A DNA stretch of 64,000 bases. It comes from Ligula intestinalis. Its lineage: Eukaryota > Platyhelminthes > Cestoda > Diphyllobothriidea > Diphyllobothriidae. Shown piece by piece: positions 1,195 to 58,040 of this stretch. The stretch is taken from NCBI GenBank assembly GCA_036362985.1, contig JAYGXS010000003.1, forward strand, positions 79,780,998-79,844,997. Reading direction: 5' to 3'. Under the pieces are notes generated by a model that was given only the letters and a program-made list of their open reading frames with translations, was not told where the DNA came from and searched no databases. Position 1 is the first letter of the stretch. Every line of letters begins with the position of its first letter. The position numbers were made by a program, and so were the translations under genes.

Positions 1195-1200
1195 TGGAAA

Positions 1201-1236
1201 CTGACGTTTCAAAAACCTCCACGCTTCCATCGTCAG
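1201..1236 (-). repeat. Hammerhead-like core, solitary
   Basis: Minus-strand core: CTGACGA at 1236-1230 (one change from CTGATGA), a 19-nt potential stem-loop, GAAA at 1210-1207, then CGTCAG. This matches the core of the pseudo-LTR-like modules elsewhere in the window. A nearby plus-strand TATCTGGACCCC (about 1281-1292) recurs at 9906-9917. Function is inferred only from resemblance. Confidence 0.45.
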
Positions 1237-1364
1237 ATTTAAGTGGTGGTTGAGTCTGGTGGTCACGACCACCAAATAGCATATCTGGACCCCGAATCTT
1301 TCGGAATTTAAATATAGATTGCTGATTGAAGCAAAAATGCGCGTACTGGACATAAATGACAAGA

Positions 1365-1646
1365 AGAAGAGACGATCTCGGGAATAGTGGTAAAATATCC
1401 TGACGTTTCGAAAGCGTGCAGGCTGGCATCGTCGGAGGTTGGTGTTTGCAGGACGATGACGGAGCTCCATCCCCGCCCGCGTAGGGGATCTAGCACCAAT
1501 AGACGGAGAGCGAACGAGAAGTCAGTTCTTACATCTATAAGGACTGTGAGGCGTGTACAAATACCAACCTCCGACGATGCAAGCCTGCACGCTTTCGAAG
1601 CGTCAGAATATTATACCCACTATTCCCGAGATCGCCTTGTCTTCTC
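1365..1646. repeat. Inverted pair of hammerhead-like modules
   Basis: Arms at about 1365-1452 and 1559-1646 are reverse complements over roughly 85 bp with few mismatches, around a spacer of about 105 bp. Each arm has a core: minus CCGACGA at 1435-1429 with GAAA at 1409-1406; plus CCGACGA at 1571-1577 with a mutated GAAG at 1597-1600. Both carry the outer sequence ACTATTCCCGAGATCG. The two copies are arranged head-to-head, as in other pseudo-LTR pairs in this window. No coding sequence lies between them. Confidence 0.7.
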
Positions 1647-1974
1647 ATATATATATCGATATATATACATCAGTTAGAATATTGTGCCCATTACAAACTA
1701 ATGCTTAGCCTCCTTTGCCTTTTTGGACTTCAACAATGAGACGATAAGCGCGCGACGCAAGCACCATTTTGAAAGACCTCTAATTTTTCCTACATTTCAA
1801 AACCTATTCAAAGAAGTTAGACATGATGCTGGCATTTGCAGTGTTAACTCATGACGCGTTGTTGGTGATCTCCCGGTTTTATGAATTTCGTGTGCCTTAT
1901 TCTATTTTCAGTGAATGGACTATGATTTCCTAAAAATTGTTGCATTATGCTTTCCAAGAAAAAGAGTGTCTCTG

Positions 1975-2378
1975 TATACAGTGTGTCCCAAAAAAATGTA
2001 TCGGAATTTTAAATTATTGTAAACTTGTTGTTTATGATAATTTTATTAATTCAGAAATGCAGAAACATTAACGATTATTATTTTATTGTTCTCTGCAGAG
2101 CAATTTGACTATTTTTTTAATAATTGGATTGACAGAAGCCACTGAACATGAATGCGCCCCAAAAGCAAGGAAATTGTTATATACTGTGTGCAATTTCATT
2201 GCTTCGCGTTGTCTGCAATGTTTGGATTGATATGAACGTCAGTTTGAGAACATTCAGTGCAAAAATAATAAACTGAGACCTGTGAATTTTTTTAAATTTT
2301 AAAATTATAAAATTATAATAAACATTTAGTTTGCAATCAGTCAAAATATGCATGCATTTTTTCAGGACACCTCGTATA
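1975..2378. mobile_element. MITE-like element with GTGTCC ends
   Basis: The left end reads TATACAGTGTGTCCCAAAAA. The right end, reverse-complemented, reads TATACGAGGTGTCCTGAAAA. Both continue as AAATG. These imperfect inverted ends of about 28 bp enclose about 400 bp of AT-rich non-coding DNA. The TA-flanked GTGTCC-AAAA ends resemble mariner-type non-autonomous elements. The class is tentative because no transposase is present. Confidence 0.5.
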
Positions 2379-4030: not shown

Positions 4031-4077
4031 CGTCACTTGAAGACGTTCACAGTGGGTGAATGCACAATAGACTCGGG

Positions 4078-9700: not shown

Positions 9701-10311
9701 AAAAGCAGGTCAAAGTTCATGTACCGACCACGGATATGATAACAGGCATGCAGCGAGGCTAAAACAGCCCTTGCAAACTAAAACAAACACCACGTTGCTC
9801 TGACAATGAATACAAGTGAGTGTCCAAAACGTCAGTCTCATTATAACTTGATCCATGTCCTTGTACCTTCTTCGTCTTTTTTGGGGGGAGGATGAACATG
9901 ATAAGATATCTGGACCCCAAATCTTTGCGCATATTATAGATGTTGTAGTGCGCACACAGAAGGTTACTACGCATAACCTAACCTTACTAGAAGCGCATAC
10001 TTACACAACTTTTAGTAGTTGTTACTTTTTCTTAAAGATAACCACCCGATGGACTGATTGAATTCCTCAGAATATGCTACCAATACACATGTTCCTGCAT
10101 TGTGAACCATTTATATATTCAGTGCGTTTCCTGTTATTATAAGCAGACCGGTGCCTGAGGCCTATGAATAGGATGAAAATGTCAGGTCGACGTCAGCGTA
10201 TGACAAGCCATGACCTGGAAGGTTTTCAACCGATGAGATAACTCGAACCGTGCATTTAGTTTGTGCGGACTGGCAAACTGGTGGGCTGAGCCATGGTTCC
10301 ATGGCAAATAA

Positions 10312-10385
10312 AACTCTTGTTCCAGTGATCGCATCTTCGTCTTCTGAACTGCTTCCTGGGACTCGAATATTCGCTTCTATCGGTT
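10312..10385 (+). repeat. Pseudo-LTR-like tail, solitary
   Basis: Contains TTGTTCCAGTGATCGC, TCTTCGTCTTCTGAACTGCT and GGGACTCGAATATTCGC. The same three blocks recur almost identically at 17339-17400 and, without the hammerhead core, in more diverged form at 28843-28905. This is the segment that follows the hammerhead-like core in complete modules. Confidence 0.6.
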
Positions 10386-10556
10386 CCTTCTATATGTGGC
10401 CTTCATGGTTCTTTTCGACAATGGGATCGGAGCCAGATGTGACGACTTGCTTAAGAGCGGCTCCAGCCACACCAACCGGCTGACACCGGGCCCAGGTACG
10501 GGAGGGTGAGTGAGTGCGGTATATGCGATGCAAGTCTACGTTATTTATAATCTAAT

Positions 10557-10867
10557 TAATAGAAGGCTGGAAGATGCTCTCTGTGACCAGTTTTTTATTT
10601 GTTCGACATTTCGGACTCTCACCCGAGGCCATTATCAAATAATGAAAACGTGCAGCTCACTGCGTGATTAAGTCAGCTCTGCCGTGGGTGACCTTGATTT
10701 CCCATTGTTCGCTCTGCTGCGAACTCAAGGTCACCCACAGTAGAGCTGACTTAATCACGCAGTGAGCTGCACGCTTTCATTCTTTGATAATGGCCTCGGG
10801 TGAGAGTCCGAAACGTCGGAAAAAAATAAAATACTGGTCCCAGAGAGCGGCTTCCAGCCTTCTATTC
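10557..10867. repeat. Large palindrome: inverted pseudo-LTR-like modules
   Basis: Arms 10557-10697 and 10725-10867 are near-perfect reverse complements (about 141 bp) around a 27-nt centre. Each arm contains a degenerate hammerhead-like core (TTGATAA, then GGCCTCGGGTGAGAGTCC, then GAAA; the right GAAA is at 10810-10813). The outer part has TACTGGTCCCAGAGAGCGG and CAGCCTTCTATT. Very similar sequence follows the PLE ORF at 43331-43440, which ties the palindrome to that PLE family. There is no coding sequence inside. The transcript would form a very long hairpin. Confidence 0.9.
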
Positions 10868-13849
10868 AAGTACCTGGGCCTCCCATATTTTCAATTATTC
10901 AGAATCTAATTGGTGTGCAAGTCATTGCATCTGCCTTAAGCTTGCTGAAGCAAGCGGTAGACCTCGTCACGTGTGATGTTCGATTTGCAAAATTGATGAT
11001 TAATCATTATACCATAGCAATAAGAGTCACTCTTCATCATATTTACAAAGAAAGCAAACACGTTTCCTTTTTCTGTGGCTTTCTGAAGCCTAGGGGCAAC
11101 AGGCAAACAAGTTATGTGCACATATATTCAAAAATGGTATTTTACCTTCTACTCCAATCTGTTTCAGATTCATTTACCTGAATAGAAAAAAATAACGGTT
11201 TTACTAGTGTATTTCGCGGCTAAGAATGGGATGAACATACAGTATGGCGGAGAAGTCAGTAAAAAATGTCAAATTTTGCGAAAAATTGCGTATTCTTTGC
11301 AAACCGACATCAAAACAACGTTTAAAAAGAGTAACGAAGAACCTTTGGCAAGTTAGTTAGTTACAAGAAACGTAAAAAGTAATTGAAAACATCCAAATTG
11401 GGGTTCCAATTAGCTCGTTTACTAGACATCAACCAGGATGAATACATCCTAAAACACATCGGTGTACAATTAATCACTATCAAGGTGCTAATTGTTTCGT
11501 ACGGAAAATCTAATGGTCTTCATAACACTCAAGATCCGCAGACTTAAAAATAGCTACTAATTACAGCAAAAAATTTAAATATTTTCATAAAATGAAACAG
11601 TAAACTAGCTACTTGCTTTATATCAGAAGATATTTTTCTTAGTCAGCATAATGTAAACATATTGCCGTTATTTAATTAAAACTATTTACAGGTGGACCTT
11701 TAAATGACGATAGAGTTGCGAGTGTCTTTAGTGCTGCCAAGCTTTCGTCCATTTAAACAGAATTTGTCAGACATTCATTTCAAAACTTTAAAATAAGATA
11801 TCTATTTAAAGCATTTACCATAAAATGAGTTTTTGGATATAATTTATTTTGAAGATGTCCATGTGGACCATATTAAGAAATAACTTCAAACAACAACACA
11901 TATTTTAGAGCAAAAGAACATCTGTGACAGAAATCAGATCTTGTGATACTTATGATTAAAAAATCGTTCTTCAATAAGTTAGCTCTTAAGAAGCACTTTC
12001 ATTAGATATACAGCTGAGGAATATGTGTAAATGTTACCTATTTCCAAGTTGTTGTCAAAAAGAAACTGACACTTTTCAGTTTACCAAAAAGGAAGTGATA
12101 CAGTTTGTTTGGAACTGAAAAAACTCCCTTTTCTCTTTATGCTGGAGTTCTTTCTGCCATTGTTGATAAGTTTGAGGCTCTGTGCTAAGCCTGTGGATGC
12201 AAAAAAGAGTTGCTCAATTTCTACTAAGGTTTTGCAATAATTATTAAGCTTCTGTTTCTTCCGTTTCTAAATTACACATCAGCGGAAATTTTGGTATACA
12301 AAAAAGCCTATTTCTAAGGGATTCGGATTAAAAAGATCTGCTTTTACCTTCTTTTTTTGAAAATAAATGGTCACCTTTGGGTACGTCTTAAATGTTTGAT
12401 GCGGTAAAACAAAATGTGGTCAAAATATTTTGACTGGATTTTGTGGCAAAACCTTCGCATATTAGCAAATAATAATGAAAACTTAAATCGCTTCTTGTGT
12501 CTGAAAGTAAATGCGATTTCCTAAACTTGGTTGCACCTGTATTTGAGCAATTTCAGACTGAAATTTCCGTATCGGGAAGAGATATATTTTAAACTGTACT
12601 GCTTGTATTTGCATCCTCTCATAGCATTATGCACTTAGATAAAAAAGTTAGTTTTGTCGTAAGCCATAGCATGGAAAATATTTTTGATATCGGGTTACCA
12701 ATGATTTTGCAAAAGCTAATGCCTATTAGCGTCAATAATCTAAACTAGAAAGACAGTTTCCTCATTTGGGTCTTTCTCAGGATTAAATGTACTCAGTGGA
12801 TCAAAATAAATTGACTAAATCTTGACTAAACTACCGAGTCAACCTTCGTCATAACCTTTGCACTAATTCATGGCCATACTCTTCTTTTGAAGGTAGTATT
12901 TTTGAGATCGATACGCAAATACAGGCATTTACGGGATGAAAGGTGCAACCATGTACACTGGATTGCTTATCGCATGAAATCTCATAAATTTTACTTGCAA
13001 ATTTCTGTTACGCGAAATCAGCAATAGTGAAACGGCTGTTCTTAAAAAAGATATTGGCAAGCATGTAAATTAATACTTACTGCCATAACAATCGTAAATT
13101 TGCACTAGAATTTCTCACCCAAATAGGGTTAACTAAGTAGCGCGGACGCATAAAAAGGTAACAAAATTGCAGAATAACCGCAAATAAAATAACAAGCAAT
13201 ACTGAATATACTATGGAGGGAGGAGGTTCTTTGGGAAACAAGGATAGTTTATTCAGTAAATTTTCGACGCTGGATCGCCAGGTCATCGTCAAGCTTGGGT
13301 AGCTGTACAACGAACAATTAAAGTCTCAAAAGTGCTAAATAGGCAATTGTCATTGTTGTGATTGCTGGTTGGCAGCTGCCATTTGCATCAGTGTGTATCG
13401 ATCGGCTCGCGTCTCTTAAATCCTTCTTTTTAAGTTTTGTACATTCCATCCCGGTCGATATGTCGGTTGATGCATGAACCATCGGATTGCATGGCCTCAA
13501 TAAATTTTCGGCCCTTTTAAATTAGTAAGTATATTCCGTTTAGTTTAATTTTATTAGTGACATGCGGTTACATTTCAGTTTGAAAAATGGGGAAAAAACC
13601 TTTCTTTTATAATTTTAGTTTGACTTTGAAATTTGTTGCATTGGTTGTAGTTATCATTTTAATTATCTCACGCGTTTATTTGCAAAAAATGGTTATTTCA
13701 ATAATTATTGGTATTGTAGATGAGAAAGGCTATGCACTCCGAGCGATATAATCAAGAAAAGACGAGGTTTTTCGGAAAAATCAAGATGCACTTGTGACTC
13801 CTGGGTACCTGTATCAAGGAACATCATTTAGCTGTCGGTTGTATGGACC
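10868..13849. other. AT-rich region, no gene recognised
   Basis: About 3 kb of AT-rich DNA, especially 11200-13000. All frames are short and match nothing I know. No inverted ends, tandem arrays or retroelement motifs were found. The least repeat-like long stretch of the window. Confidence 0.5.
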
Positions 13850-14345
13850 GCCTATCCCTCGTCTTTGCACACGTAATTGATTACGACCATCGATTCAGTT
13901 GCGATGACACATAAATCGTCACCGTGGCCAATACAAAACCAGCATCTGAATTGCTCGAGACTTGGTACTCTACGGCGGGCAGTACCAAACAGCACGTCGA
14001 TTTGAATGAGCAATACGGTGCCTTGAGATCCAAACTTACCGTTCCCCGTCCTATTCAAACACCGACGGCCGCTGACCTAATCACATCCACATCCCCCTCC
14101 AACAGCACGCCCGCCACAAACACGCAGCTTCACCATCACATCCACCGACCCACTATCAACCACCCCCCTTTCATCCGCAAGCTGCCCACAAACACGCGCT
14201 TGCACAAACTATGAGTCACTCCACACGCCATTGGTCTAACTTTCTTGATCGCTTAAACTGTCTACTGTAATTCTTTTCCCTCACTCCTCGTTATTTCTTC
14301 TGATGAAGAGCACGTGTTACGAGCTCGAAAATTCACAAATACATC
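13850..14345 (+). mobile_element. Penelope-like C-terminus followed by exact CTGATGA core
   Basis: Around 13870-14060 the translation carries the C-terminal block of the PLE nuclease domain (a degenerate stretch, then ASELLETWYS and KQHVDLNEQY). A proline- and threonine-rich tail ends at 14214. About 85 nt downstream comes a core with exact CTGATGA at 14300-14306, stem arms GAGC (14308-14311) and GCTC (14323-14326), and GAAA at 14327-14330. An ORF end followed by this motif matches the 3' layout of PLEs. The 5' part and the RT are missing. Confidence 0.65.
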
Positions 14346-15250
14346 CTGATGTTTCCGAAGAACTTCTTCTTTTCGTAATAAGTGATATTATTGTTAAGAC
14401 GGCACAGAATATAAGTCAATAATATAGCCGTCCTCGGTTCATGAGGACTGAGGGAGAACAACACGTGATTGCACCATCGCACAAAGGGCCAGGTTACGGA
14501 CAGCCTTCAAGTGCCCAGACCACAGGAAAACACAAAAATTTACGCACACACGAAACAGTGCTGCCGGGTTGTGTCATCTCGAGGTCACTAACTTCACAGG
14601 ACGGCTGCCAGGATTAGTAATTCGTGCAGAAACCAATATGAAGAGACCTAGAGGACATGGAATGCTACGGACAGAAGGCAGGATCTGCTGCTCACGAAGA
14701 GGAAAAGCTAGAGACGAGACGACTGCTGCCCAAAGTGCAGGGACATACAAACAGACACTGCAGAGCTAATGTACACACAAAGACTGTTGCAGTAAACTGT
14801 TTTCTTCTATCCTGCCTGCCTTCTATTCCACACATAAAACTGGGGAACTCTGAGTTTCAGTCGCAGGTAGCAGTGGCCACTAGCGAAGCCAGGGCTAGCG
14901 TTGACTGCGCCCAGTCATGTCTGAGAGAGTGGTGGCCTCTTCTTTTACAGGGTTGTGAAGCAATTTCAAGTAGAGTGCGATTGGTGTGTTGCACGGTCCA
15001 AGGGGGTGTCGCGTATACAGGCAAATGCTGCGTTGGCCGAAACCTGGCGTGTTCAAGTGGCCCTGAGGCAGTCATGACTACCTGGACGCGCGTGGAAGTC
15101 TGTCAATGGTCTTTAGGTCAGCGAATCGGAAACGGCTGCTTGTGAAGTCGTATGTCGTTGGGGCAGCGGGTATCGAACACAGAAATTAGCGAGCATTGTT
15201 GGCTGTCCGCCCAAAGTTGCTACCAAATGATTGAAATAGGCAATACCTAA
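14346..15250. other. No recognisable gene
   Basis: Several overlapping frames exist, up to 162 codons at 14657-15145 (plus), but none has family motifs and both strands are open over the same GC-richer stretch. I do not support a gene here. Confidence 0.4.
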
Positions 15251-15254: not shown

Positions 15255-16400
15255 GTCGGGAATTGAAGCAAATATGCGTGGCCCAGGTTCTTGTTGTAAA
15301 GAGGAAGCCACGATCTCTAGAACGACTACTTTATTTTTCTGAGCTTTCGACTCCACACGAGAAGCCATCATCAGAGAAAATGAGAAAACAGCAAACGTTG
15401 GCTACGCGTATGCGGGGGCGGAAGAGGGTTCGCACTTATGGTTTGTCCATAGCTATGCCACACCCATTCTCACGCCATCTTATCGTGTGTCCCCTACGCG
15501 CGTCCCTGGAGTTGTGGAGTGCGCCCTTGACGTGGCTGCCTGCATGTTTGTACAGAAACTGGGCCGTAGTTTCAGGTCATAAGTACGGATGGCATAGTAA
15601 CAGGATGGTATATTCGCATGCATGTTGATGGAGTTGGGATCTGACACCCAGGCCTCCAGCAGTTCGCGTCTCATCCTATTACTGGCTCGTGCCATTATCC
15701 GTGTGCCCGAGAAGTCGAATTCGTAGCCTTCTTCCAGGGTGTGGGTAGCGATCTGGGACAGTGGGTCGCCTCTCCGTTTTGTCCATTTGTGGTCCGTTAT
15801 TCGCGAGCCAAGTTATCGCCCGGTCTGCCCTGCATAATGGTTAGAACAGTCGCAAAATGGCACCTGGTAAACGACACCAGACTGCTCAACTACATCTAGT
15901 GGGTCGTTTATTTGCATGGTTCGTGCACGCATAGTAGCAATCGGGTGATAAGCAATACCTATGCCGAGCTCTGCGGCGATGCGCTCGGTTGCTTCTGACA
16001 CGTTTTTAATGTATGGTAGAGGATGCCAGAGCGTTGGTGATCCCACTTCGTTTGTTCCCCGTGGGCGCGTTCGGAGGCATCGGTGGATGAAGCTGTTGGG
16101 GTATCCGTTCATGGCAAGTTGGTCCCGAAGATGTCACAATTCTTGCGCTCGTCCTTCCGGTTCAATGCAGTGTGTTTTCACCCTCTGAAATAGTGCTCGA
16201 ATACAGCCACGTTTATGCGTTAGTGGGTGGTTGCTATGGGAGCTGAGAACCTGGGTTGTGTTAGTTGTCTGTCTATAAACTGCGATGCTCACTTCCCCGT
16301 TGGATCTGCGTGTGACAAGGTCATCCAGGAATGGTAGTTGTCCGGCATTGTCTTCTTCCTTTGCGATGTCGCAGGTTTTGGAAATCTGCTAACCTACTCC
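15255..16400 (-). mobile_element. Penelope-like element, RT end to 3' pseudo-LTR
   Basis: Minus strand. LPFLDDLVTRRSNG and VYRQTTNTTQVLSS at 16350-16240 are the last PLE RT blocks. They are followed by the linker FIHRCLRTRPRGTN and the GIY-YIG domain (GVVYQVPFCDCSNHYAGQTGR), whose IG is changed to AG. The C-terminal RRELLEAWVSDPNSINMH block comes next. In-frame stops occur within the linker (near 16135) and after TGR (near 15813). After the ORF, an exact CTGATGA (15374-15368) and GAAA (15348-15345) flank a 6-bp pairable stem (GGCTTC/GGAGTC, with wobbles). This is the 3' half of a PLE with its hammerhead-like tail. Confidence 0.82.
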
Positions 16401-16857
16401 GTTCGATTCTACCGAAAGTATCGTTCACGTATTGGCACCAAAACGCAGTTTCAAACTGTTCAAAGGAGACTTTTTTCCAGCTCCTGTAAGACCATTTCTG
16501 CGATGAGACTGGAAATTGGGGATCCTATCGGCGTCTTTTTTGCCTGTGTGTGTGCGTTTTCTATAAGGTCGTGGAAATTTTCTGAGTAAAAGGCATACTA
16601 CGTACGTAGTTTTTTTTACAGAATTTTTTTTTTCAGACGGTCGGTATGAATCCCGTTCCAAAACCCACTGAAATACTTGGGCATTATGCAGCATGATGAA
16701 TAATATTCGAACGTTAAGCACTCTTTTCAAAACGAAAACCTATTGCATAATTTTGATTAACATTTCACGACTGACAGACAGGGAGGCAGGCAACTTATTT
16801 GAATAAGTGCTCCTTCAGGACATTCAATGTCATCTGATTCAAATGCAAAGACAAGAG

Positions 16858-17300
16858 CTCATACTGTTCAGAAGATGAAGATGCGATCACTGGAACAAAA
16901 GTTATATTTTCCTGACGTTTCGGATTCCCTCTGGAATCCTTGATCATAGGTAATCGAAGAACAGTCTGAAACATGCGCAGGTAGGGTGATACATGCACAG
17001 ATAACACGGTATTTATAGTTCGTAGCGGTCAACCCCATGCGTACTATAATTGTCAGTTCCTTTAGCCACCGCTTGATGTCGTAATTGGTGCGATGATGGC
17101 TCATTAATTATCAAGGCATTCTTGTCCGCTTCAGATGCGGGGTTGATAATTACGCGACAATTATGCCCGCTGTCGTCAGAGTTGTCGTTGCGCCCAGTCC
17201 TTCCCACGTGACTGATTCTCTCGCTCAGGAAATGTCTCAGTACACCGTATGGGAACGCCAAATCGTTGCGATTGTTGATAGACTGGGGCCGGAAAACCAT
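16858..17300 (-). repeat. Pseudo-LTR-like module with TATA box and hammerhead-like core
   Basis: In minus-strand order: a GC-richer leader (CACGTGGGAAGGACTGGGCG near 17205, GACGACAGCGGGC), a TATA-like CTATAAATA at 17018-17010, a hammerhead-like core with a degenerate first box (CTATGATCA), stem arms GGATTCC/GGAATCC, GAAAC at 16921-16917 and GTCAGG, then the tail GTTCCAGTGATCGCATCTTC ending near 16858. The leader resembles 24655-24845 and 25722-25912. A plus-strand tail copy lies next door at 17333-17400, giving a head-to-head layout. Confidence 0.65.
17010..17018 (-). promoter_or_regulatory. TATA-like box in pseudo-LTR-like module
   Basis: CTATAAATA on the minus strand, about 70 nt upstream of the hammerhead-like core. 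The same box at the same relative place occurs at 31659-31668 (plus) and 49514-49505 (minus). A related TATATAAAC lies at 27627-27619 (minus). Conservation across otherwise diverged copies suggests an RNA polymerase II promoter; this is inferred. Confidence 0.45.
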
Positions 17301-17332: not shown

Positions 17333-17400
17333 ACCTCTTGTTCCAGTGATCGCATCTTCGTCTTCTGAACTGCTTCTTGGGACTCGAATATTCGCTATGA
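17333..17400 (+). repeat. Pseudo-LTR-like tail
   Basis: Near-identical to 10312-10385: TTGTTCCAGTGATCGCATCT, TCGTCTTCTGAACTGCTTCT, GGGACTCGAATATTCGC. It diverges in the opposite direction from the minus-strand module at 16858-17300. Confidence 0.6.
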
Positions 17401-19479: not shown

Positions 19480-21060
19480 CAAACCTGCATTTTTTTAAAA
19501 GCTGACCACGATATTTTTTGCAATTTATAGGAGTGCATCGAGAGTGTTATTGCATTACCCAACTTGATATGTTTTCGCAAAAGAAAGTAGGCAAAACGAC
19601 TCAACTGGGATAGAGATATTCTTCCTCTAAGCAATTTACTGTTTCGAAGTGATCCCTCTGCCACCCTACAAAATGCCCCGTAGTTGCATCCGCTCGTTCA
19701 ACTTTTAAAAAGCGTGGCACACCAAGTTACTGCCATTCTGCAAACCGAAATCCTTGCTGAACTGATTTATGACTGAAGGAAAATCAAAAAGAAGTATAAA
19801 GACTTAGTACTAGGCAGAACTTCGGTGCTATGCACGTTCGTCTCAACATATGAACTTCTTCGCAATGCAACTCAGCGGAGTCTATTACAAACACGCCAAT
19901 TAACACGTTCAGATGCACGTAACTGAACAGGTCCCATTAAGTGTGGTTCTCTCAATAATACTTTGCCTTTTTCTCAGGTCTGCAAAAATCTCATTGGCCA
20001 GGACATGTGCATTTACTTCCTCGCACGATAAAAAATTCCTTCGATGCAACAATTTGTAGTTTACCATGCATAATTATCAACTTATTTCATTAAAGTAAAC
20101 ATGCTCTGTTTCATAATTTCATATAATCGTGGATTGCAGTGTTTTTATATATGACTTTACTTGCGTACGGTTCTTTTTTATGTTTATTATTTTATTTTTA
20201 AATTTTAGTTTATTTTACTTTCCTTCGGGTTCAGTTAGTTGGCTTTAGTTTATCTTACTTTAGTAAATTTACTCTGCTTTTCAGTTACGTTTAAGTTAGG
20301 TCTTTAATTTGTTATTTATTCTTATTAGGTTATGTTTCGTTTTTACTTCAATCACTCTAGTTCACTTCCCTTTGAATTTTTTACTGAAGTTTACTATTTA
20401 GTATCCGAGTTTTGATAGAAGAGCTTGCATGCTTGTGGCTGGAACATCTGTGGTTTTAAAATTCGCTTAATTTAAGCTGGAACTCAGTATGTGGATGATG
20501 CTTTCTTCGGCATCGAAGCAGATTAGGTGTCAAAATTCAAAGGATATCTTACTGTCATTTTCTCGGGCATACAGCTCACGATGGTTGAGAAAAAAGTAAA
20601 CGGTAGGGCTTTCTTGTGAGGCCGCCTAACTTTTAAAGGATTTGTTCGATAGTTTTTTTCGGTGAGTGGGCTTTCTTTTTCGTCTTTGGCACCTATTCCT
20701 CAACTTTTTAACCTACATTTTCAATTAAATAAAACAATAAGAAGCTTCTTTATTGCGCATTTTGCCGCACCAAAGAGACGCTGGTTTACCTTCATCCCTT
20801 TAATCCCCTTTTACCCCTTATTTTGCAGAAATTCGCGACGGGAGAATTTTCTTTTCCAGGTGGCCTCACAAGAACATCCTACCACAAAAAGAACTCACCG
20901 GCTTTTCTCGACGTTCTCGTCTACCACAAAGGTTGCGGTGATCTAAAAAGTAAACTTTTCAGGAAAGTGGCCAAAAGGACATTAGTACTGGGATTTAGCA
21001 GCCACCTCCCACTCATTCACAAACGAAGTTCAGCGATGATACCCATATAAGCATTAAGGA
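19480..21060. other. AT-rich region, no gene recognised
   Basis: Runs of T-rich low-complexity DNA (about 20170-20400). No coding or repeat signal that I can support. Confidence 0.45.
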
Positions 21061-21208
21061 AGTCAAGTTAAGCGAAGGAACGTTTTCGATTAATTCATCA
21101 TCAGGCAATACAGTAATATAAGGGAGGGTAGATTTAACGAAAGTTTTAGGCAAACCAACCAGTAGTAACAACGGAACAGATGGGGGAGAGAGGTGTAAAA
21201 GGATCAAG
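21061..21208 (-). repeat. Inverted pseudo-LTR, left copy
   Basis: Reverse complement of 23838-23982 at roughly 90% identity over about 145 bp. On the minus strand it contains TGTATTGC, exact CTGATGA (21104-21098), TGAATTAATC and GAAAA (GAAA at 21087-21084). It lies 3' of the PLE coding region. Confidence 0.9.
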
Positions 21209-21488
21209 GGGGATCACGGGGATCAGCTTTTAGTCTTAATTGGGGACAGATAAATGGGGGTGGGGGGAGAGGGGAAGGGAAAATAGTCAGACAACTAGTT
21301 AATGTCATCCAGTGGTACTCGTCTCGGGTTTTGTTGGGAGGTGTGAGGACGCAAGGTTTCAACGTCTTGAGACGGTTTCGGTGGCCTTTGGATGCTTGAT
21401 GCCGCTGTCTTACCATTGTTTCGCGGCGTAGTAAGAGGCGTGAGGGCGGATTTTGAAAAGGCCTTTGTCCACGGGAGCCTTAGGGCCG

Positions 21489-23644
21489 CTACGAATGCTT
21501 TCTGCGCACATAAAATTGGGTTTGTGCGGCGAATGGCGACTGCTTCTGTCGTCGCAAGTATCCGCTGACGCAGGAACTTAGAGTGTTAGCCGAAACTTTA
21601 TAGACGACTCTAAATGTATGGTTGACATCTACCCGATGACCGCTGTCTACCAAGTGAGCCAGAATTGCGCTTGACATCGACTTAGTTTCGCCTCTGTTTA
21701 GCCATGCAGGGTGGTGCTCTCGCATGCGCTTGGATAGACGTCTAATCGTTCGACCACTGTAACTTGTCCCACAGGAGCATGTAAAGTTTTAGATACACAT
21801 TGATGTGGTCTGGAATGGCAGTCTATCCTTGCCTTCAAGGCGAAGAAGTGGAGTGCTTGAGAACAATAATCTTAACTTTGCTGCTGGATATGTACGCGCG
21901 ATTGCAGCGTTCAGACGAAGCTGTAGAAGTTCGCTTGCTTTATCACCTTGAAAAGGCAATGTAAGAAATATGGTTTTCTTCTCAGCCGTCGGTACCTCCG
22001 GTCTTGGTGGACGTTCCTCCATAAACTTATCGATGAACTTATCGGGGAACCCATTTTCTTATAAGGTATTTTTAAGCAGTACGAGTTCGTTCTCCAGTGT
22101 GTCTGGAGAACATATTCTACTATCTTGGTTCGTGAGGCAGCGGACTAGGCCTCGTTTCTGACTTAGTGGCACAAAACTGTAGAAGTTCGTATATTGCCCT
22201 GTCCAGATCTTCTTACGAAATACACTTCTAATTATTGATCCATCAGATCTTCTACTAAGGAGGACGTCCAGAAAGGGGAGGCACTGTCTGTCCCTTTTTT
22301 CCAAAGTGAAGGTTAACGCTGAGTGCACCTGATTCACGTTATCTAAGAATGCGTCAAGCTCAAGTCTTCCGTCTGCTATTATAAATATATCATCCACATA
22401 GCGATCATAGGCTGGAAGGTCTTTTATAATAGGAGAAAGTTTGTTGCTCGCCATTTTGCTCATGAAAGTATCCGCTAAAAGAGGTCTTAGCGGTGATCCC
22501 ATCGCTACCCCATCGATTTGGCGGTAAAATTGGCCATTAAAGCTGAATTGCACGTTTAAAGTGCAGCTTAAGAGTAATTTCTTCATGTCTATGATCGGCA
22601 TGCCGATTGGGAACTCTTTTTTTAACAATCTCGTCACACGAAAATTCGATGGTTTCTGTGAGGGGGATATTGGTGAACAGTGACGCGACATCTAGGGATA
22701 ACATCGTTTTACCGTTGATAGTAGTGTTTCTTATGGATTCGACGAATTCAAACGTATCCCGTAGGCTATGCGGTGCTATTTGGTGCCGAATCGGTTTCAA
22801 CTTTTCTGCCAGCCACTTTGCAATTGCATGATATGGTGAGTTGCATATTTCAATTATTGGCCGTATTGGAAGGTCCGGTTTGTGAATCTTTCGCAAACCA
22901 TAAAGCCTTAGGGGAGCTGTGCCTGTGGGTTTCAGCGCTTCTAACTCTTCTTCACTAAGAAAACCTCGGCCTTTCAGTTTCCGAAGACAAGTAGTGAGTT
23001 GAATTTCTATGTTCTCCGTTTGATCCTTATTTTGTCTTTCCCTTTTTGAACTTAGTTTCGTCAGCCAGGATTGATTCAATTTTTGAGACGTAAATACTTT
23101 TACTCATAAGAACGAGACCATAACCTTTGTCCGGTTTTGTTATGAATATATCAGTATTTTGGCGCAAAACTTTGAGCTTAACCAACTGCTCTTTCGTAAT
23201 GTGTCCAATACTTAAAGGTTTAGTTCAAAGATATTGATAGCAACAATTCACGAGTGTAGATTTGAAATACTCTGCCTCTTCTGGCGTTGTAGGTACTAAG
23301 TCATTTGTCTAACTCAAAAGATTTTCGAATTGCACTTCTGCCCCTTATCTGTTCAGCCTTCTATTAGGAAAACAAAATTTGTGGCCTAGAGATAGTACTT
23401 AAAGCAGGTGTTTGTCAAGGGTCATGTTGGTAAAATTATGTACGTACCGCTCCTGATCATTTGGGAATGAGGATTGAGCATTCTTCGGATTGATACTGCG
23501 GATGAGTTTTGTCCGTTTTACTTCAATACGTATTTGATTCACAGTCTGTACGTAGCTGCTGAAGTTCATTCTTTCTTCATCGTTTAAGTCATTCAGGACT
23601 GCCATTCGTTGATGTAGATTTCGGTTTAGCTCATTGATCTTCAT
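21489..23644 (-). mobile_element. Penelope-like element coding region (RT + GIY-YIG), degenerate
   Basis: Reading 5' to 3' on the minus strand: an N-terminal region (ending near 23399), then LRLYGLRKIHKPDLPIRPII, motif A LSLDVASLFTNIP, a frameshift near 22610, VQFSFNGQFYRQIDGVAMGS (motif B), motif C YVDD at 22400-22389, and LPFLDVLLSRRSDGS. A stop at 22059 precedes PFQGDKASELLQLRLNAA. The GIY-YIG domain has its first tyrosine replaced by TAA (21791-21789) and YIG changed to YSG. It ends with MREHHPAWLNRGE and the C-terminal HLVDSGHRVD block. The RT catalytic residues are intact; the ORF is dead. It encodes the PLE polyprotein (reverse transcriptase plus nuclease). It is bracketed by inverted repeats. 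Confidence 0.9.
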
Positions 23645-23837
23645 TGCGAAACCTTTTAGTCGATTCTCGGCATATCTCTTTTAAGTTGTGTTCGAGATTA
23701 TCATTCGACTACTTCGAAGAGACTTCCAGTAATCGTGAGGATATTCACATTTGACTGTGCAGTTTGTGATAAAATCAGAAACTATATTCGCTTCGGCAAG
23801 GCGGGTGTTGAAACGCAGGTACTCATTAAGTACCCCA

Positions 23838-23982
23838 TGATCCTTTTACACCTCTCTCCTTCATCTTCCCCTTGTTACTACTGATTGGTTTGCCTAAAAC
23901 TTTCGTTAACTCTACCCTCCCTTATATTACTGTATTGCCTGATGATGAATTAATCGAAAACGTTCGTTCGCTTAACTTGACT
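23838..23982 (+). repeat. Inverted pseudo-LTR, right copy
   Basis: Reverse-complement partner of 21061-21208. Contains exact CTGATGA (23939-23945), TGAATTAATC and GAAA (23956-23959), followed by a TTCGTT/AACGAA pair that could form a stem. Sits 5' of the PLE coding region, oriented outward. Confidence 0.9.
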
Positions 23983-26236: not shown

Positions 26237-26760
26237 TTGTTGTTGTCGACAGCTGAAATTGTTACCGGGTGGGGTTGTGAAATCAAAAAAGGTGAAGTAA
26301 GAAGCATCAACAGTGCTATCTTTGCCCACATGCTTTACTCCGGACATCGAGTGGACCCCAACGAAGCTTTCAAGGTAATTTATAAGGTCCCATCAAAATA
26401 CCCGGGTCAGTATTTCCTAGCAACAGCAGACACAACCGCGATCCCCTTGAGGAAGTCGGGGTTCGGGCGCACAAAAGAACCTCCTGTGAGCTCCGAGCTT
26501 GGGATGCTCAATGGCTACATAACTGTCTGCCCCTTTCCGTGCTTTCTCTCCTTTTCACTCTGCCTCGTTTTCAGATTCAACAACCCCCATCGTCTCGTAA
26601 CCAGCCGAATACTATCAACCCCAACCCCCCACCCCTATTTTCAAGACAAATTTGCCTGTATTTATGAACATACTTGCTCATATGCAATCTTTTACCCCCT
26701 TCCCATATAAATGTAATAACTCGACGAGAATTAAACAAAAGCTTACTTATGCTCGCCAAA
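26237..26760 (+). mobile_element. Penelope-like C-terminal fragment and 3' end
   Basis: The translation contains EVRSINSAIFAHMLYSGHRV and AFKVIYKVPSKYPGQYFLAT, the post-GIY-YIG block also seen at 57509-57650. RT and the GIY-YIG core are missing. Downstream (26716-26745) a degenerate version of the CTGATGAGAATTTATCGAAA core at 57980 is recognisable, so this is a 5'-truncated 3' end of the same PLE family. Confidence 0.72.
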
Positions 26761-31500: not shown

Positions 31501-31559
31501 ATCATTTCGCAAGTCGCCTCTTGAGAAACGCACAGACCACCGCGTCGTTTTGCGCCAGC

Positions 31560-31830
31560 ACCGGAGAGTCAGATGGCAGAGCAATCATCACGCCTGAGTC
31601 AGATTTCACATGCCGGGCAACAAGTTATCAACACACAAGCGGGCGATTATTGTTAATTCTATAAATACTACAAATTTCTGCGTATATGTTACCCATTTCC
31701 GCTATTGCGCCCTGTTCATGTCTCTGGTGAAGAATCCGCAATGGATATCGAAACGTCAGGCGAACAAAGGTGTTGTCCCAGCGATCGAGTTGTCGTCTTC
31801 TCCATGTTCACTGAGTTATTTCGATTATAG
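31560..31830 (+). repeat. Pseudo-LTR-like module, plus
   Basis: Head-to-head with the previous module. GGCAGAGCAATCATCACGCC, then TATA-like CTATAAATAC (31659-31668), CTGGTGA (31724-31730), stem GAATCC-GCAAT-GGATATC, GAAAC (31750-31754), GTCAGGCG, then TTGTCCCAGCGATCGAGTTG. One of the better-preserved cores in the window. Confidence 0.7.
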
Positions 31831-41929: not shown

Positions 41930-43310
41930 CTGACACTGACAACTGGCAAGGTTTGGACTGGCCAAGTGGCTTTTTCAGCGTTTCAAAGTTCTATCAGAGG
42001 ACTCTGCAACGACCATCAAGTCAGCTGAACAGTTCAAACAAAATCTGCAGGGTATTCGACTAACATATGACGAAGGGATGTTTTCCTTCGATGTGACCAC
42101 ACCTTTCACCCCGATGCCGCAACGTCTTGCAGTGGCAACAATTCAAACCCTGTTAGAAGAACAGTAAAACGAGGCGGACATGAAGCGCAAAATAAGCCAT
42201 GTTGTTGGACTCCTGAAACGCTGCTTAAGCACCTTTTACACCTTCAATGGAACCGTGTACGAACAAATAAAAGGTACACCAATGGGGCCGCCGTTGTCCG
42301 GCCTGATTGCCGAGAAAGTATAAGAATGAATAGAGGCACTGGCTTTTGAGCACTATCAACCATGATTGTAGATCCGGGATGTTGATGAAACGTTTGTATT
42401 CATCAGTCGAGACAGGATTGAGGATTTTAAAGAGATTCTGAACTTCATATTCCCCGACATCCAGTTCACGAGGGAGGAAGAAAAAGACTGCCAGTTGCTG
42501 TTCCTCGACGTGCTGATGTGCAGAAAAAATGGTTGGGAACTCAAAACAACAGCTTGCAGAAAGGCGATGAATACCTCGCATATTCTGAGTTAAATTAGCA
42601 ACCATCCCGTGGCGCACAAACGCAGCTGCGTACGAACGCTGTATCGCCACACAGAAACTCACTGCAGCGAACCAACAGACGAAAAGGCCGAGGTCAATTA
42701 TCCGCGGAAACTGTTCAAAATGAATGGGTATCCTGGCACCTTCGTCGAAAAATGCAGGCGCGGAACAAAAAAACAACGGGGCAGCCAGAATTAAAACACT
42801 GGCAAGCAATAGGCTTTATTGCTTGCGTATCCGAAGAATTTGCCTGACTGGTTAGCGAATTCGGGATTGGCGTCGCTCACCGACCGGAAGCGACAATCCG
42901 CAGCCGAAGGACCAATATATGTCAACCAGAAATCCGGTGTTATTTACCAAATCGATTCTCTTTGCGGTCAAGCCAATTATTATGGCTATACCAGCAAACG
43001 GGTTGCCACGAGACTGCACGAGCATGAACTCGCCGTGCGAAGGAAGGACAAGCTATCTTTGGTCACCGTCCACGCATACTCGCCAGGGCGCGACTTCGAC
43101 TTCAAACACGTACGAATACTAGGCCAGTCGGACGACAGAGTCCCACGCCTATTGCAAGAATATGGCACTCGCACGCGGATTCTATTAAAAGGCATACCAA
43201 TCTCCCAGATGTCTATCTCACGTTGCGCGAGCAATGACAGGGCTCAAGTTCACTCGCGGCGAAGCGAACAATGGGGCCTCAAGGTCACCTCCGGCAGAGC
43301 TGATTTATAA
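41930..43310 (+). mobile_element. Penelope-like element (RT + GIY-YIG), degenerate
   Basis: RT motif A survives as FSFDVTTPFT, then GTPMGPPLSGLIAEKV (motif B, near 42280). Motif C is DVDE where the family has YVDD. LLFLDVLMCRKNG and VAHKRSCVRTLY follow. The linker is MNGYPGTFVEKCRRGTKKQR. The GIY-YIG region (SGVIYQID, then a small shift, NYYGYTSKRVATRLHEHE) has IG changed to YG. It ends with HAYSPGRDFDFKHVRILG. At least four in-frame stops lie between 42165 and 42370, plus more after 42590. Same PLE family as 15255-16400. The N-terminal part is weak or missing. Confidence 0.82.
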
Positions 43311-43330: not shown

Positions 43331-43440
43331 CTGTACGCTTTCACGCCTTGACAATGGCCTCGGGTGAGAATCCGAAACGCCAGGCAAGTAAAATACTGGT
43401 CCCAGAAAACGTCCTTCCGCCTTCTATTCAATTACCTGGG
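43331..43440 (+). repeat. 3' pseudo-LTR-like segment of the preceding PLE
   Basis: GAGCTGTACGCTTTCACGCC, TTGACAA (43348-43354, degenerate first box), GGCCTCGGGTGAGAATCC, GAAAC (43374-43378), GCCAGG, then TACTGGTCCCAGA and CCTTCTATT. Matches the right arm of the palindrome at 10725-10867, and identifies that palindrome as pseudo-LTRs of this PLE family. A CCAG/CTGG pair could close the third helix. Confidence 0.75.

Positions 43441-44408: not shown

Positions 44409-44454
<46 letters not shown>
44352..44454. repeat. (CA)n repeat with assembly gap
   Basis: CA dinucleotide tract on both sides of ten Ns at 44399-44408. The true repeat length is unknown. It sits between the SLC25 exon and copy B of the 470-bp repeat; the corresponding position in copy A has no CA tract. 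Confidence 0.98.
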
Positions 44455-44456
<2 letters not shown>

Positions 44457-52089: not shown

Positions 52090-52245
52090 GAAGTTGAGAT
52101 GTGGTAATTGGATTAAGCACGTAGCCGCATGGCGACTGCATCTTAAAAATGTTGCCGCTCATCACCCTTATCAGCGACTGTCTCTGGTGATGGGTTGCAG
52201 GAAAACCTGAAACGTCATGCTCCAGCAACCGCATCTTCTTCTAAA
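52090..52245 (+). repeat. Pseudo-LTR-like core, plus
   Basis: CTGGTGA at 52184-52190, stem GGTT...AACC, GAAAC at 52209-52213, GTCATG, then CCAGCAACCGCATCTTCTTC. The upstream TATA box is not evident. Confidence 0.5.
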
Positions 52246-52630: not shown

Positions 52631-52639
52631 CTGCCAAAG

Positions 52640-54990: not shown

Positions 54991-54999
54991 TACGCTGAA

Positions 55000-55430
55000 T
55001 TCTGCCCACACAATGTCCAACCAAGCACAGGCCGACCTAGCCAATAACCGCTCTCTCTCTCTGTCTACTGGCCTGACTGCTGTCAAACTGGCACTTGCAC
55101 CGCGGCTGGCTCTCCTGCTGGTCCTAAGCTCTCCAACTCAAATCTCTGTCCATCTATTCTCCGTTTCTTTGTGTACACAATAAACTTTTCCTTCTACTCT
55201 GGCCTTCCTAAGACTTCTATTCTACTACTTGGGATCCGGTCAATCTCCTGAGCATACGGGCTCTCCCGAGTCAATCTACTCTCATCTATTCTCCTCTCCC
55301 TTGTGTACACAATACATTCTTCCTACTACTCTGGCCTTTTACGACTTCTCTCCCGCACTAAGTAACCATGGTCTGAAGATCGCAGTTGCCGGGTTTAACT
55401 CACTTAACCCCCTGCGATAGATTATAGATT
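55000..55430 (+). repeat. LTR-like repeat, tandemly duplicated
   Basis: CAGGCCGACCTAGCCAATAA, then two adjacent copies (about 55120-55250 and 55262-55430) of the block with TTGTGTACACAATA, CTACTCTGGCCTT and GACTTCT. The second matches 51180-51345 closely, through CCATGGTCTGAAGATCGCAG and TTAACCCCCTGCGATAGA. Confidence 0.55.
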
Positions 55431-55439
55431 GATTGCTCA

Positions 55440-55595
55440 GGAAATCCCGCTTGAGCGGTCAGAATTGATGGATGTCATATGTTGCGGTAGACTGGATGGG
55501 TAAATGGACCCACCGCGGGATTACACTCACGACTCCTGGTGGGTGCTTCGTAGCTCAGTTGGCTAGAGAGTTGGTTGTACTAAAGCCCCCCCCCC
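55440..55595 (+). mobile_element. SINE-like fragment
   Basis: GCTTCGTAGCTCAGTTGGCT then AGAGAGTTGGTTGTACTAAA is a tRNA-like 5' half with a good A box; the B-box half is missing after a C-run. The sequence before it (GAAATCCCGCTTGAGCGGTC) resembles 27941-27960, upstream of the plus-strand SINE. Confidence 0.5.
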
Positions 55596-56221
55596 CTAAC
55601 AATACGGCCAAATGTGCCCAACCCCTCGATCGATAAGTTTAGAAAAATGTAATTTTTGCACTGATAATTCCTGTTTCATCGATTTTCAGCAGAAAATAAC
55701 CTACACCCGACTGGCTGCTGGTAACAGTACTTGTCGATAGCATCGGACTGGTACATGAAATTAGCCAAGACCTCGAATTTCTAAACTGAATCACACATAC
55801 AATTTTCGAAGCTGATCGTACAATATTCCTATTTTAGATTCACGCTGACGTGGGCGTGAATGACTTCACATTCACTCCATAGCGATTGTGGCGTTTGTCA
55901 ACCGCCTGAGTCACAAGCCAACTGGAAGACATGTGGCACTGAGACAATGACTCAGCCAATGGTTACATCGAATTGCCACCCGCATATAAAGCGTTTCAAA
56001 AAGAAATTAATAGCAAATGGCCGAAGGTGATTTTCAAGACCCAGACGAACTTGAGATTACGGTCGACAAAATTCAAGACTGGCATCTAAAGTCTTATTTG
56101 CAAGCTGTCAGATCTTGGAATAACAGGAAAGCGCTTGAACCGGATTTAAGAATTCTTACGCTGTTGTTCAGAACCGGTGCTTGTTAAAACTTAAGTCCCA
56201 TAAGGGTCAGCCCTCGGGCCG

Positions 56222-58040
56222 CTTTTATTCATAAACTATGTAACTGAATATGACTTAGAGCGTCTCCGTCCCGTTGGCACGCACATACCTCGATTATATG
56301 GGCTGCCTAAGATTCACAAATATGGCATGCCCGTTCGTCCCACCCTAGATTTGAGAAACTCGCCATACCATGTGACAGCAAAATGGCTAGCAGACAAGCT
56401 GAAACCCATACAGAGTCAAATAGTACCTCACAACCTCCGAGACACCTTCGAATTCGTGGACGGCGTAAAAGACCTCGACCTGAACGGGATGATGATGTTC
56501 TCATTTGATGTCTCGTCCCTGTTCACGAACGTGCCGGTGACAGAAACAGTAGACTACATCTGTGAATTCATTACCTTGACTCAGCACGACATAGGAATGC
56601 CGGTAACTGCACTGAAGGAATTATTACTAAAATGCACCTTGAATGTACAGTTCCTATTTGACAATAACCTGTACAGACAATTGGACGGAGTAGCTATGGG
56701 CTCGCCCCTGGGCCCACTTCTAGCAAATATATTCATGGGCAAACTAGAAGCTACGCAACTTAGCCACCAGATAAATAATCTAACGTACTATAAACGGTAC
56801 GTTGACGACATATTTGCAGTTGCATCAGATCAAACTAACTTATCAACACTAATGCATACTGTAAATCGGGCGCACCCATCGATAAAATTTACCCTAGAAG
56901 AAGAACAATCTAGATCGCTTCCATTCCTTGATGTGCTATTGAGTAAAAGAGCTGATGAGAGCATTCAACATAGAGTATATCGAAAGAAGACGTGGTCTGG
57001 GAAACACATCAATTTTGCTAGTTTCGTACCGTTGAACTTCAAACGCAATTTAGTACGGTATTTGACACAAAAGGCGAAGAGGATTTGCTCGACTGATAGC
57101 ATTGAAGAGGAGCTTAAGATTATTGAAGGCGTGTTTCGACAAAATGGGTATCCTTGTCGATTTATCGCTAAAAACATGGCTGAAATGCCGTCAAAGCCCT
57201 CACTACTAACAATGGAAAAGAAACATATCGTCATCAGAGTCCCATTTCAAGGAGACGGACGAAGGGAACTACTAAGGAGGCGCCTGAGTCAAGCCGTAGT
57301 AACTACCTTCCCAGCAGCCAACGCCCATGTATTGTTCTCAACTACTCCCATCCTATTCGGAGAGATCAAGTATAAACTGCCAGCTCAGACCACCTCTATG
57401 TGCATATATTCATTTGTCTGTTCCTGTTGGACAGGATATATTGGTCGCACGAGCCGGTGTTTATCCAAAAGAGTAAGATAACACATCCCAGCATAGTTAG
57501 GGAAGGGCCAAATTAAGGGCATAAATAGTTCCATCCTATCGCACTTGGTAAACTCTGACCATCGCGTGGATGCCAAAGAGGCCTTCCGAGTGATCTACAA
57601 GGTGCCCTCGAGCTACTCAAAATTCCTCGGACAGCGTCTGTTGGCAACGGCAGAGGCTGCCGCCATTAGGCTACACCGACCAGTGCTGTGCGCCCAAAAG
57701 AACTTCGTCGCGGCGCCACAGTTACCATGGGCGAAACTAGCTAACACGCCTACACACGGTGGACCACTGGCCTCGGAAACGGACCCCCGCAGAGACGAAC
57801 AAGTCCTAAATCCAGCCACGCACACCTTATCGGCGATCTTGGACGCCGGGCCGTCTAGAGATTGACCTTCTGTCCACAATTTCCCCAACCCTCCCCCGCC
57901 GACCTTGACAACAATAACGCGAAATCTGTCCACGAACCGCCATTGTTTATTTATTTCAATACCACATAAATGTAAAGGCCTGATGAGAATTTATCGAAAA
58001 CAAACGTATGTTCGCCAATTTATCTTCTGAAACTATGTAA
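56222..58040 (+). mobile_element. Penelope-like element (RT + GIY-YIG), best-preserved copy
   Basis: One frame runs from about 56230 to 57865 with only two stops. Blocks: PRLYGLPKIHKYGMPVRPTL, motif A FSFDVSSLFTNVP, motif B GVAMGSPLGPLLANIFM, motif C YVDD at 56798-56809, RSLPFLDVLLSKRADES, then the GIY-YIG domain CIYSFVCSC...GYIGRTSR (57401-57457). TAA at 57479-57481 and TAG at 57494-57496 interrupt RVR-HIPA-L where a sister copy has REHHPAWL. The C-terminal SILSHLVNSDHRVDAKEAFR and the tail complete it. After the ORF, exact CTGATGA (57980-57986), GAATTTATC and GAAA (57996-57999) mark the 3' end. The RT and nuclease residues are all intact. The N-terminus is missing or divergent; a 56-codon frame at 56017-56187 may be its remnant. 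Confidence 0.92.

What the first reader, a model, noticed from the sequence alone, without database searches (positions are those of the whole stretch)
1195..58040. A hammerhead-like core recurs at about 17 places in 64 kb
A first box CTGATGA (or a one-base variant), a short pairable segment of about 10-20 nt, then GAAA occurs at many sites. Exact first box and GAAA: 14300-14330 (+), 15374-15345 (-), 21104-21084 (-), 23939-23959 (+) and 57980-57999 (+). One-base variants of the first box: 1236 (-), 27573 (-), 31724 (+) and 52184 (+). The copy at 31026 (-) has the exact first box but a lost GAAA. More decayed copies lie at 1435, 1571, 10557-10867 (two), 16945, 43348 and 49475. Several sit just after PLE ORFs. 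Hammerhead motifs in PLE pseudo-LTRs are established knowledge; the density and the number of distinct sequence families in one window are notable.
Basis: partly seen in the sequence, partly recalled or inferred. Interest (0 to 1): 0.75.

Follow-up and report, generated by a model that had tools for sequence, protein, structure and literature searches.

The report
Decayed tapeworm Penelope retrotransposon hammerhead ribozymes
The repeated motif is real: it looks like the small self-cutting RNA (hammerhead ribozyme) that Penelope-like jumping genes carry, here mostly as worn-out copies in a tapeworm genome, so it is a well-documented example of a known thing rather than a new one.

Summary
Four copies are added; 6 of 20 keep both boxes. 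Thirteen of 20 share CTGANGA-N19-GAAA: a minimal type I hammerhead with an extra U after A9 and no helix III of its own, only a self-complementary ACGT (AGCT, AATT in others) suited to pairing two RNAs. Covariation supports helices I and II. Rfam finds nothing, but also misses evident viral-contig hammerheads with this core, so that test does not decide. Five of nine Penelope-like (PLE) remnants have a copy 145-266 nt downstream. Copies form head-to-head pairs, some with direct repeats and a 30-nt tail at one end: published PLE architecture. Genome-wide a strict pattern occurs 887 times, reversed 0. The density is ordinary for such genomes. The best lead, insert ends at the ribozyme cut site, was tested in one subfamily without clear enrichment. 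Cleavage was not measured. Verdict: new members of a known kind.

The parts
14300..14335 (+). intact minimal hammerhead, family C; stem II GAGCaCG/CGaGCTC, helix III palindrome AATT, cut expected after C14334
15340..15374 (-). intact minimal hammerhead, family A; stem II GGCTTC/GGAGTC, helix III palindrome AGCT; 151 nt after a PLE remnant
1202..1236 (-). intact-core minimal hammerhead, family A (CTGACGA, N7=C), palindrome ACGT
57980..58014 (+). family B hammerhead with intact boxes, stem II of about 2 bp and a hairpin helix III AAC..GTT; 145 nt after PLE coding remnant
   Evidence: stems read by eye
23939..23969 (+). family B hammerhead, helix III AAC-GTTC-GTT, right end of PLE insertion 21031-23982
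21079..21104 (-). family B hammerhead boxes, near left end of PLE insertion 21031-23982
1401..1435 (-). decayed family A copy, head-to-head partner of 1571+
1571..1605 (+). decayed family A copy, head-to-head partner of 1435-
1058..1092 (+). decayed family A copy (new)
9800..9834 (+). decayed family A copy (new), 502 nt after PLE remnant
10604..10638 (-). decayed family A copy, left half of palindromic insertion
10784..10818 (+). decayed family A copy, right half of palindromic insertion
10537..10915 (.). 379-bp head-to-head insertion, 8-bp direct repeat TGCAAGTC at both ends, right end 30 nt longer
13257..13292 (-). family C copy (new), one core change, stem II with a bulge, helix III AATT
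13714..14386 (.). possible head-to-head insertion of family C; left arm starts within 2 nt of the predicted cut site; 9 of 10 bp direct repeat (4.5% of random anchors do as well)
16913..16947 (-). decayed family A copy with perfect 7-bp stem II
26721..26745 (+). decayed family B copy (new, found by looking after a PLE remnant); helix III AGC..GCT, a two-sided change from AAC..GTT
27539..27573 (-). decayed family A copy
30992..31026 (-). decayed family A copy, left end of insertion
31724..31758 (+). decayed family A copy, right end of insertion
30912..31805 (.). probable head-to-head insertion with 9-bp direct repeat GTTCACTGA, left end 33 nt longer; part of the repeat resembles element sequence
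43348..43382 (+). decayed family A copy 164 nt after PLE remnant
52184..52217 (+). decayed family A copy (N18 spacing)
21031..23982 (-). PLE insertion with inverted terminal hammerhead segments, 9-bp direct repeat AACGAAGTT, left end 30 nt longer (tail)
10301..10381 (+). 81-nt tail-only copy starting within 1 nt of the predicted cut site, candidate 6-bp duplication GGTTCC
17336..17397 (+). tail-only copy starting about 13 nt after the cut site
56204..57835 (+). PLE coding remnant (reverse transcriptase), 68% to Spirometra and Sparganum proteins
15525..16546 (-). PLE coding remnant
41940..43184 (+). PLE coding remnant; weak GIY-YIG match below Pfam cut-off in 42819-43310

Best explanation
The sites are the minimal type I hammerhead ribozymes of Penelope-like retroelements, mostly decayed, in pseudo-LTRs and solo ends left by many insertions. 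In an active element the motif sits roughly 150-270 nt after the coding region, at the junction to the next unit of a tandem. Its core is C3UGANGA9, an extra U, stem II of 5-7 bp, GAA, then a four-letter palindrome (ACGT, AGCT or AATT) that cannot form helix III alone, so two RNA copies would have to pair there to complete the ribozyme (family B instead has a short helix III hairpin). Cutting after C17 would separate tandem units. Reverse transcription starts at one of two sites about 30 nt apart, downstream of the motif (38 and 68, or 76-96 and 109-126 nt from the ATG-like position, by family), giving inserts with or without a tail; priming on both target strands would give the head-to-head pairs. 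Shown here: the core, its covariation, the PLE linkage, pairs, tails and repeats. Inferred: cleavage, dimer action, priming on both strands.
For: 13 window copies, gapless: 79.5% of cells paired in the three-helix model, covariation score 0.397 against 0.202 shuffled (0 of 500) and at most 0.178 slid. Stem II: two-sided changes in 4 of 6 pairs; arms dealt among copies p 0.0017 for 13 and 0.0047 for 10 non-redundant copies; helix I in register 38 of 52 cells, slid at most 30. All 12 essential positions have the hammerhead letter as majority, mean conservation 0.878 against 0.652 for the other columns. A model of these 13 finds held-out 52184+ (E 1e-4) and 14300+ (E 0.011). PLE coding remnants and adjacency. 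Genome: 887 exact matches, reversed pattern 0; 61 distinct hairpins, 197 of 305 inner cells paired against 162.6 (sd 6.4) with arms dealt; of 10 neighbour pairs within 5 kb among 100 listed places 9 are head-to-head, 1 same-strand, none tail-to-tail; 8 of 9 such pairs have the tail at exactly one end. The architecture is described in PMC3846280 (passages) and PMC11167929 (main text section).
Against: Rfam gives no hammerhead hit in the window at E up to 10. The count of pairs with two-sided change is reached by 22 and 47 of 500 shuffles, so that measure alone is weak; helix III rests on one pair with one two-sided change. Single-sequence folding is no better than shuffles (z -1.85 to +1.63 in 8 sequences), and for 15374- and 16947- the lowest-energy fold is an extended hairpin. 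A rival extended hairpin pairs slightly more cells, 80.8%. Helix II of family B is only about 2 bp. Fourteen of 20 copies have lost at least one box letter. The codon-position test gives no coding signal (119/131/103), so the published overlap with the ORF start is not supported here. By the looser measure the repeat at 10537-10915 scores 8 of 10, as 43% of random anchors do. No cleavage was measured.
Confidence: 0.9

Rival explanations
1. The conserved block is an extended hairpin (CUGAUG pairs with CGUCAG around stem II), a protein-binding or processing signal of the PLE RNA and not a ribozyme.
For: RNAalifold chooses a short form of it; the full form pairs 80.8% of cells with covariation score 0.354, 0 of 500 shuffles; single copies 15374- and 16947- fold so.
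Against: Its covariation comes mainly from stem II, which it shares with the hammerhead. Its outer helix fits worse in 15374- (GCTCAG) and 14300+ (ATTCAC), where the palindrome is kept as AGCT and AATT; it does not explain the conserved unpaired A9, A13 and A14 or the covarying helix I.
Confidence: 0.07
2. The segment is conserved only because it encodes the first residues of the PLE protein (M...SKRQ).
For: 14 of 20 copies have ATG at A9; the fixed spacing keeps a frame; PAc has its ORF start at stem II (PMC11167929) and a rotifer PLE has the first 12 residues of the ORF in the pLTR (PMC3846280).
Against: Differences fall about equally on codon positions (119/131/103 in 8 pairs); coding does not predict covarying stem II arms or conservation 5' of the ATG.
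Confidence: 0.02
3. Chance matches to short degenerate boxes.
For: Four of the nine exact sites look like this.
Against: 10 rows against 1.87 expected; 3 strict sites against 0.05; 887 against 0 genome-wide.
Confidence: 0.01

Closest known systems
Minimal type I hammerhead ribozymes of Penelope-like elements (Cervera and de la Pena 2014; Lunse, Weinberg and Breaker 2017; neither held, known to me through later papers and their reference lists)
   Same: no real helix III, location in pseudo-LTRs, thousands of dispersed copies, dimer action proposed (PMC7761336 and PMC6155905, passages)
   Different: nothing fundamental seen; this window shows family-specific palindromes ACGT, AGCT and AATT and a family with a short helix III hairpin
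Poseidon PAc element of Anolis (PMC11167929, main text section and passages)
   Same: hammerhead at the pLTR-ORF junction, ORF start at stem II, two RT start sites that define the tail, both target strands cut and extended in vitro
   Different: tapeworm PLE; no protein or activity data here. The PAc hammerhead cuts only with its protein and is not needed for insertion in vitro
Penelope of Adineta vaga (PMC3846280, passages)
   Same: head-to-head inverted pLTRs, 9-bp target duplication, 31-bp tail on one of them, palindromic junctions
   Different: that paper infers self-priming from the inverted ends; the word hammerhead does not occur in it by the count
Metazoan retrozymes (PMC7229834, passages)
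   Same: type I hammerheads in short mobile repeats
   Different: retrozymes are short tandem repeats without coding partner, in invertebrates usually with a real helix III; the copies here link to PLE coding sequence and show no tandem array

Membership tests
hammerhead ribozyme | core C3UGANGA9 ... G12AA, A15.1-U16.1, H17 (recalled numbering) | tested here: met
   majority letter correct at 12 of 12 essential positions in 13 copies; both boxes intact in 6 of 20 copies
hammerhead ribozyme | helices I and II with covariation | tested here: met
   genome hairpins (helix II only)
hammerhead ribozyme | helix III within one molecule | tested here: not met
   families A and C have only a palindrome; family B has a 3-bp hairpin. 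For the PLE variant a missing helix III is part of the description (PMC6155905)
hammerhead ribozyme | match to Rfam hammerhead models | tested here: not met
   weak as evidence, because eight viral-contig loci with the same core also gave none at gathering and L028 none for that site at E up to 10
hammerhead ribozyme | self-cleavage | not testable with these tools
   needs a bench assay
PLE pseudo-LTR hammerhead | adjacent to PLE coding sequence | tested here: met
   5 of 9 PLE remnants within 300 nt, 4 of 9 without the one found by looking there
PLE pseudo-LTR hammerhead | inverted pLTR ends, tail on one end, target duplication | tested here: met
   of 8 window pairs, clear at 21031-23982, good at 10537-10915, probable at 30912-31805, possible at 13714-14386, none usable in 4; genome pairs
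retrozyme | short tandem non-coding repeats with type I hammerhead | tested here: not met
   Tandem Repeats Finder shows no array at the sites

The most novel reading that the evidence does not exclude
The self-complementary helix III may do more than cut: by pairing two PLE RNAs it could act as a dimerisation signal that delivers two templates to the protein dimer, one for each target strand, which would explain why inserts are head-to-head pairs whose two ends usually differ by one tail (8 of 9 pairs). A second reading, that hammerhead cutting sets some 5' ends of inserts in vivo, is weakly suggested (four ends within 4 nt of the cut site in one subfamily, two more in the window) but not shown.
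Probability: 0.12. Interest if true: 0.7.

Novelty: new member of a known kind. Interest (0 to 1): 0.3.

Why it matters
It documents the PLE hammerhead in what looks like a tapeworm genome, with 887 exact copies of one strict form, shows by covariation that helices I and II are real, and shows that Rfam scans can miss this class. The role of these ribozymes in PLE transposition is called unknown in PMC7761336, and PMC11167929 finds cleavage unnecessary for insertion in vitro; the young, numerous copies in this genome, with two discrete 3' ends and head-to-head pairs, are good material for testing it.

Tried and rejected
Rfam at gathering and at E up to 10: negative, and found to be uninformative. 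Cut-site footprint: in the window two tail-only copies start within 2 nt of the predicted cut (10303+, 13797-), so I tested it in one young subfamily of the genome. Of 266 tail copies the first 100 were listed; 71 of these also appear with the intact upstream segment, and the other 29 were all obtained (3, 26). Two of the 29 start within 4 nt of the cut (L080, L094). A pattern for a non-C before the cut gave 9 places genome-wide, of which L118 and L121 start there; the others are changed, shifted or start elsewhere. In the fetched loci the 5' ends of 12 copies (without L118 and L121) spread over -41 to +8, about 0.22 per nt, so four ends against roughly 1.9 expected by my own arithmetic: no clear enrichment, and the sample is not even. 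Coding-frame test: no signal. Dimer cofolding did not single out the hammerhead dimer. PLE protein against viral contigs: no relative. The covariance model also scores most of the 35 viral loci, but those were picked by the same letters, so this proves nothing. The candidate repeat of pair 27573-/28785+ lies inside element sequence and was dropped; pairs 1435-/1571+ and 16947-/17336+ gave none, 49475-/52184+ only 6-mers. Left undone because the genome search stayed busy: the spectrum of helix III pairs, ends at neighbouring positions, and a second subfamily.
Full report
What was checked. The pattern CTGATGA-N5..35-GAAA occurs in 10 rows at 9 sites against 1.87 expected. Reading each site shows that 13 of 20 share one architecture, CTGANGA-N19-GAAACGTC with losses, with an N18 version (52184+) and N20 versions (14300+, 13292-); these are here called families A and C. 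A second, shorter one with N9-N10 (57980+, 23939+, 21104-, 26721+) is family B. A strict structural descriptor finds 14300+, 15374- and 1236- where 60 Markov sequences give 0.05 on average; with one core change allowed it finds 6 sites against 0.98, largest 3, adding 1058+, 52184+ and 13292-.

Is it a hammerhead? In the 13 gapless family A copies the conserved columns are the hammerhead ones: the majority letter is right at 12 of 12 essential positions, their mean conservation is 0.878 against 0.652 for the other columns of the motif (random choice of 12 columns p 0.001), and the free position N7 varies between T and C. The numbering of core positions is recalled. Stem II pairs in 79.5% of cells, four of six pairs show changes on both sides, and no shuffle of 500 reaches the covariation score, though 22 of 500 reach the number of such pairs. 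Dealing the arms among copies gives p 0.0017, or 0.0047 with 10 non-redundant copies; helix I pairs in 38 of 52 cells in register against at most 30 slid by one or two columns, p 0.009. The last helix is a four-letter palindrome, ACGT in most, AGCT in 15374-, AATT in 14300+ and 13292-; in family B a hairpin AAC..GTT, AGC..GCT in 26721+ (read by eye). An extra base, mostly U, stands between A9 and stem II.

A control for Rfam. The same core with the extra U occurs in viral contigs of IMG/VR: of 35 loci found by pattern, 13 have a stem II of at least five pairs in a 17-19-nt hairpin, several of them near-identical; helices I and III were read by eye in L028 and L002. Rfam finds none of eight of these loci at gathering, and in L028 misses this site even at E up to 10 while hitting another hammerhead weakly. 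The Rfam negative in the window therefore carries little weight.

What it belongs to. The coding remnant 56204-57835+ is a Penelope-like element: its named best relatives are Spirometra and Sparganum proteins at 68% identity; a Schistocephalus protein reaches 79% over 47% of the query and an unnamed metagenome protein 85% over 54%, which suggests a diphyllobothriid-type tapeworm. The relatives carry the PLE-type Cys-rich GIY-YIG end by my reading. tblastn with 120 relatives marks 11 stretches; I set aside 20760-21029+ (one weak hit) and 46876-47010- (one hit inside another reverse transcriptase ORF) and kept nine. Five of the nine have a same-strand motif 145-266 nt downstream, a sixth at 502 nt; random placement of 20 motifs gives 0.41 on average and P 2e-5 for five. 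Leaving out 26721+, which I found by looking there, P for four is 5e-4.

Insertions. Copies come as head-to-head pairs. An open search for shared words at pair ends gave 9 bp at exact offsets for 21031-23982 and 8 bp for 10537-10915. A scan that allowed ends equal within 2 nt or 27-33 nt apart gave 8 bp, 9 bp, 9 bp (30912-31805) and 9 of 10 bp (13714-14386), each with one end 30 or 33 nt longer; 2.3% of 1000 random anchors reach 8 exact and 0.7% reach 9. By a looser count of matches out of 10, 4.5% reach 9 and 43% reach 8. Four of eight pairs gave nothing usable. This is the architecture published for Adineta (PMC3846280, passages) and linked to two RT start sites in Anolis PAc (PMC11167929, main text section).

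The whole genome. The assembly has 644 Mb in 2377 contigs; TGATGATGGN{8,20}GAAACGTCAG occurs 887 times, the reversed control never. Of the 100 places listed, 96 have the same spacing. Among 61 distinct hairpins of that length the inner pairs form in 197 of 305 cells against 162.6 with arms dealt and at most 165 slid. One young subfamily has 266 tails, 172 with the intact exact segment upstream. Among the 100 listed places, 10 neighbour pairs lie within 5 kb: nine head-to-head, one same-strand, none tail-to-tail. In 8 of 9 such pairs exactly one end carries the 34-nt tail. Of 77 distinct copies 42 have the tail by a regular expression and 35 do not, at least one of these (L061) with a changed tail; 57 of 77 have a TA repeat of at least four units near the 3' junction.

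A lead tested and not supported. Two tail-only copies in the window begin within 2 nt of the predicted cut, one with a candidate 6-bp duplication, which 2% of random anchors also give with ends restricted as in the pairs, and 9.5% with looser ends. In the young subfamily of the genome 5' ends are spread over the motif; four fall within 4 nt of the cut where I estimate about 1.9. In 71 of the 100 listed tails the insert runs on upstream through the cut, in line with the in vitro finding that the hammerhead is not needed for insertion (PMC11167929).

Density. Sparganum proliferum has 197,550 Penelope copies (9.95%) in 653.4 Mb (PMC8166898, passages), about 19 per 64 kb, so some 20 motif sites, several of them paired ends, is ordinary.

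Literature. In the listings of searches (open-access library; one search shows 15 of 297, 25 of 28, 15 of 28) I saw no paper on hammerheads of tapeworm PLEs and none linking insert ends to the cut site. The two founding papers on PLE hammerheads are not held, so this is no claim of priority.

Noticed in passing
window 28048-28128 (+), inverted copy 27745-27850: tRNA-like sequence above Rfam gathering, with an 84% inverted copy 203 nt away, between two hammerhead copies; similar sequence (70%) recurs at 31150-31508: perhaps a SINE caught between PLE ends.
   Followed up: no
IMG/VR loci L013, L015-L017, L019-L021, L023, L025, L028-L031, L002: Viral-contig hammerhead-like motifs with an extra U after A9; in L028 and L002 helices I and III were read by eye. 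Eight of these loci gave no Rfam hit at gathering.
   Followed up: partly
L028 13020-13095 (-): Second, weak RAGATH-1-type hammerhead match (25.4 bits, E 1.3) about 260 nt from the first.
   Followed up: no
window 45856-47520 (-), 35613-38434 (+), 62806-63636 (+): Other reverse transcriptase and endonuclease ORFs, probably non-LTR; 33443-33864 and 44453-44921 are 83-87% similar direct copies.
   Followed up: no
window 61629-62001 (+): Tandem repeat with a 201-bp unit within an open frame.
   Followed up: no
loci L044-L113, 3' junctions: The young PLE subfamily sits mostly next to TA repeats (57 of 77 copies): target preference, or repeats seeded by the insertion.
   Followed up: partly
loci L071, L084, L086, L087, L109, L110: Six of 12 nearby insert 5' ends fall 27-36 nt before the cut site, at the 5' edge of the hammerhead: a possible reverse-transcription stop or microhomology at TGATGATGG.
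   Followed up: no
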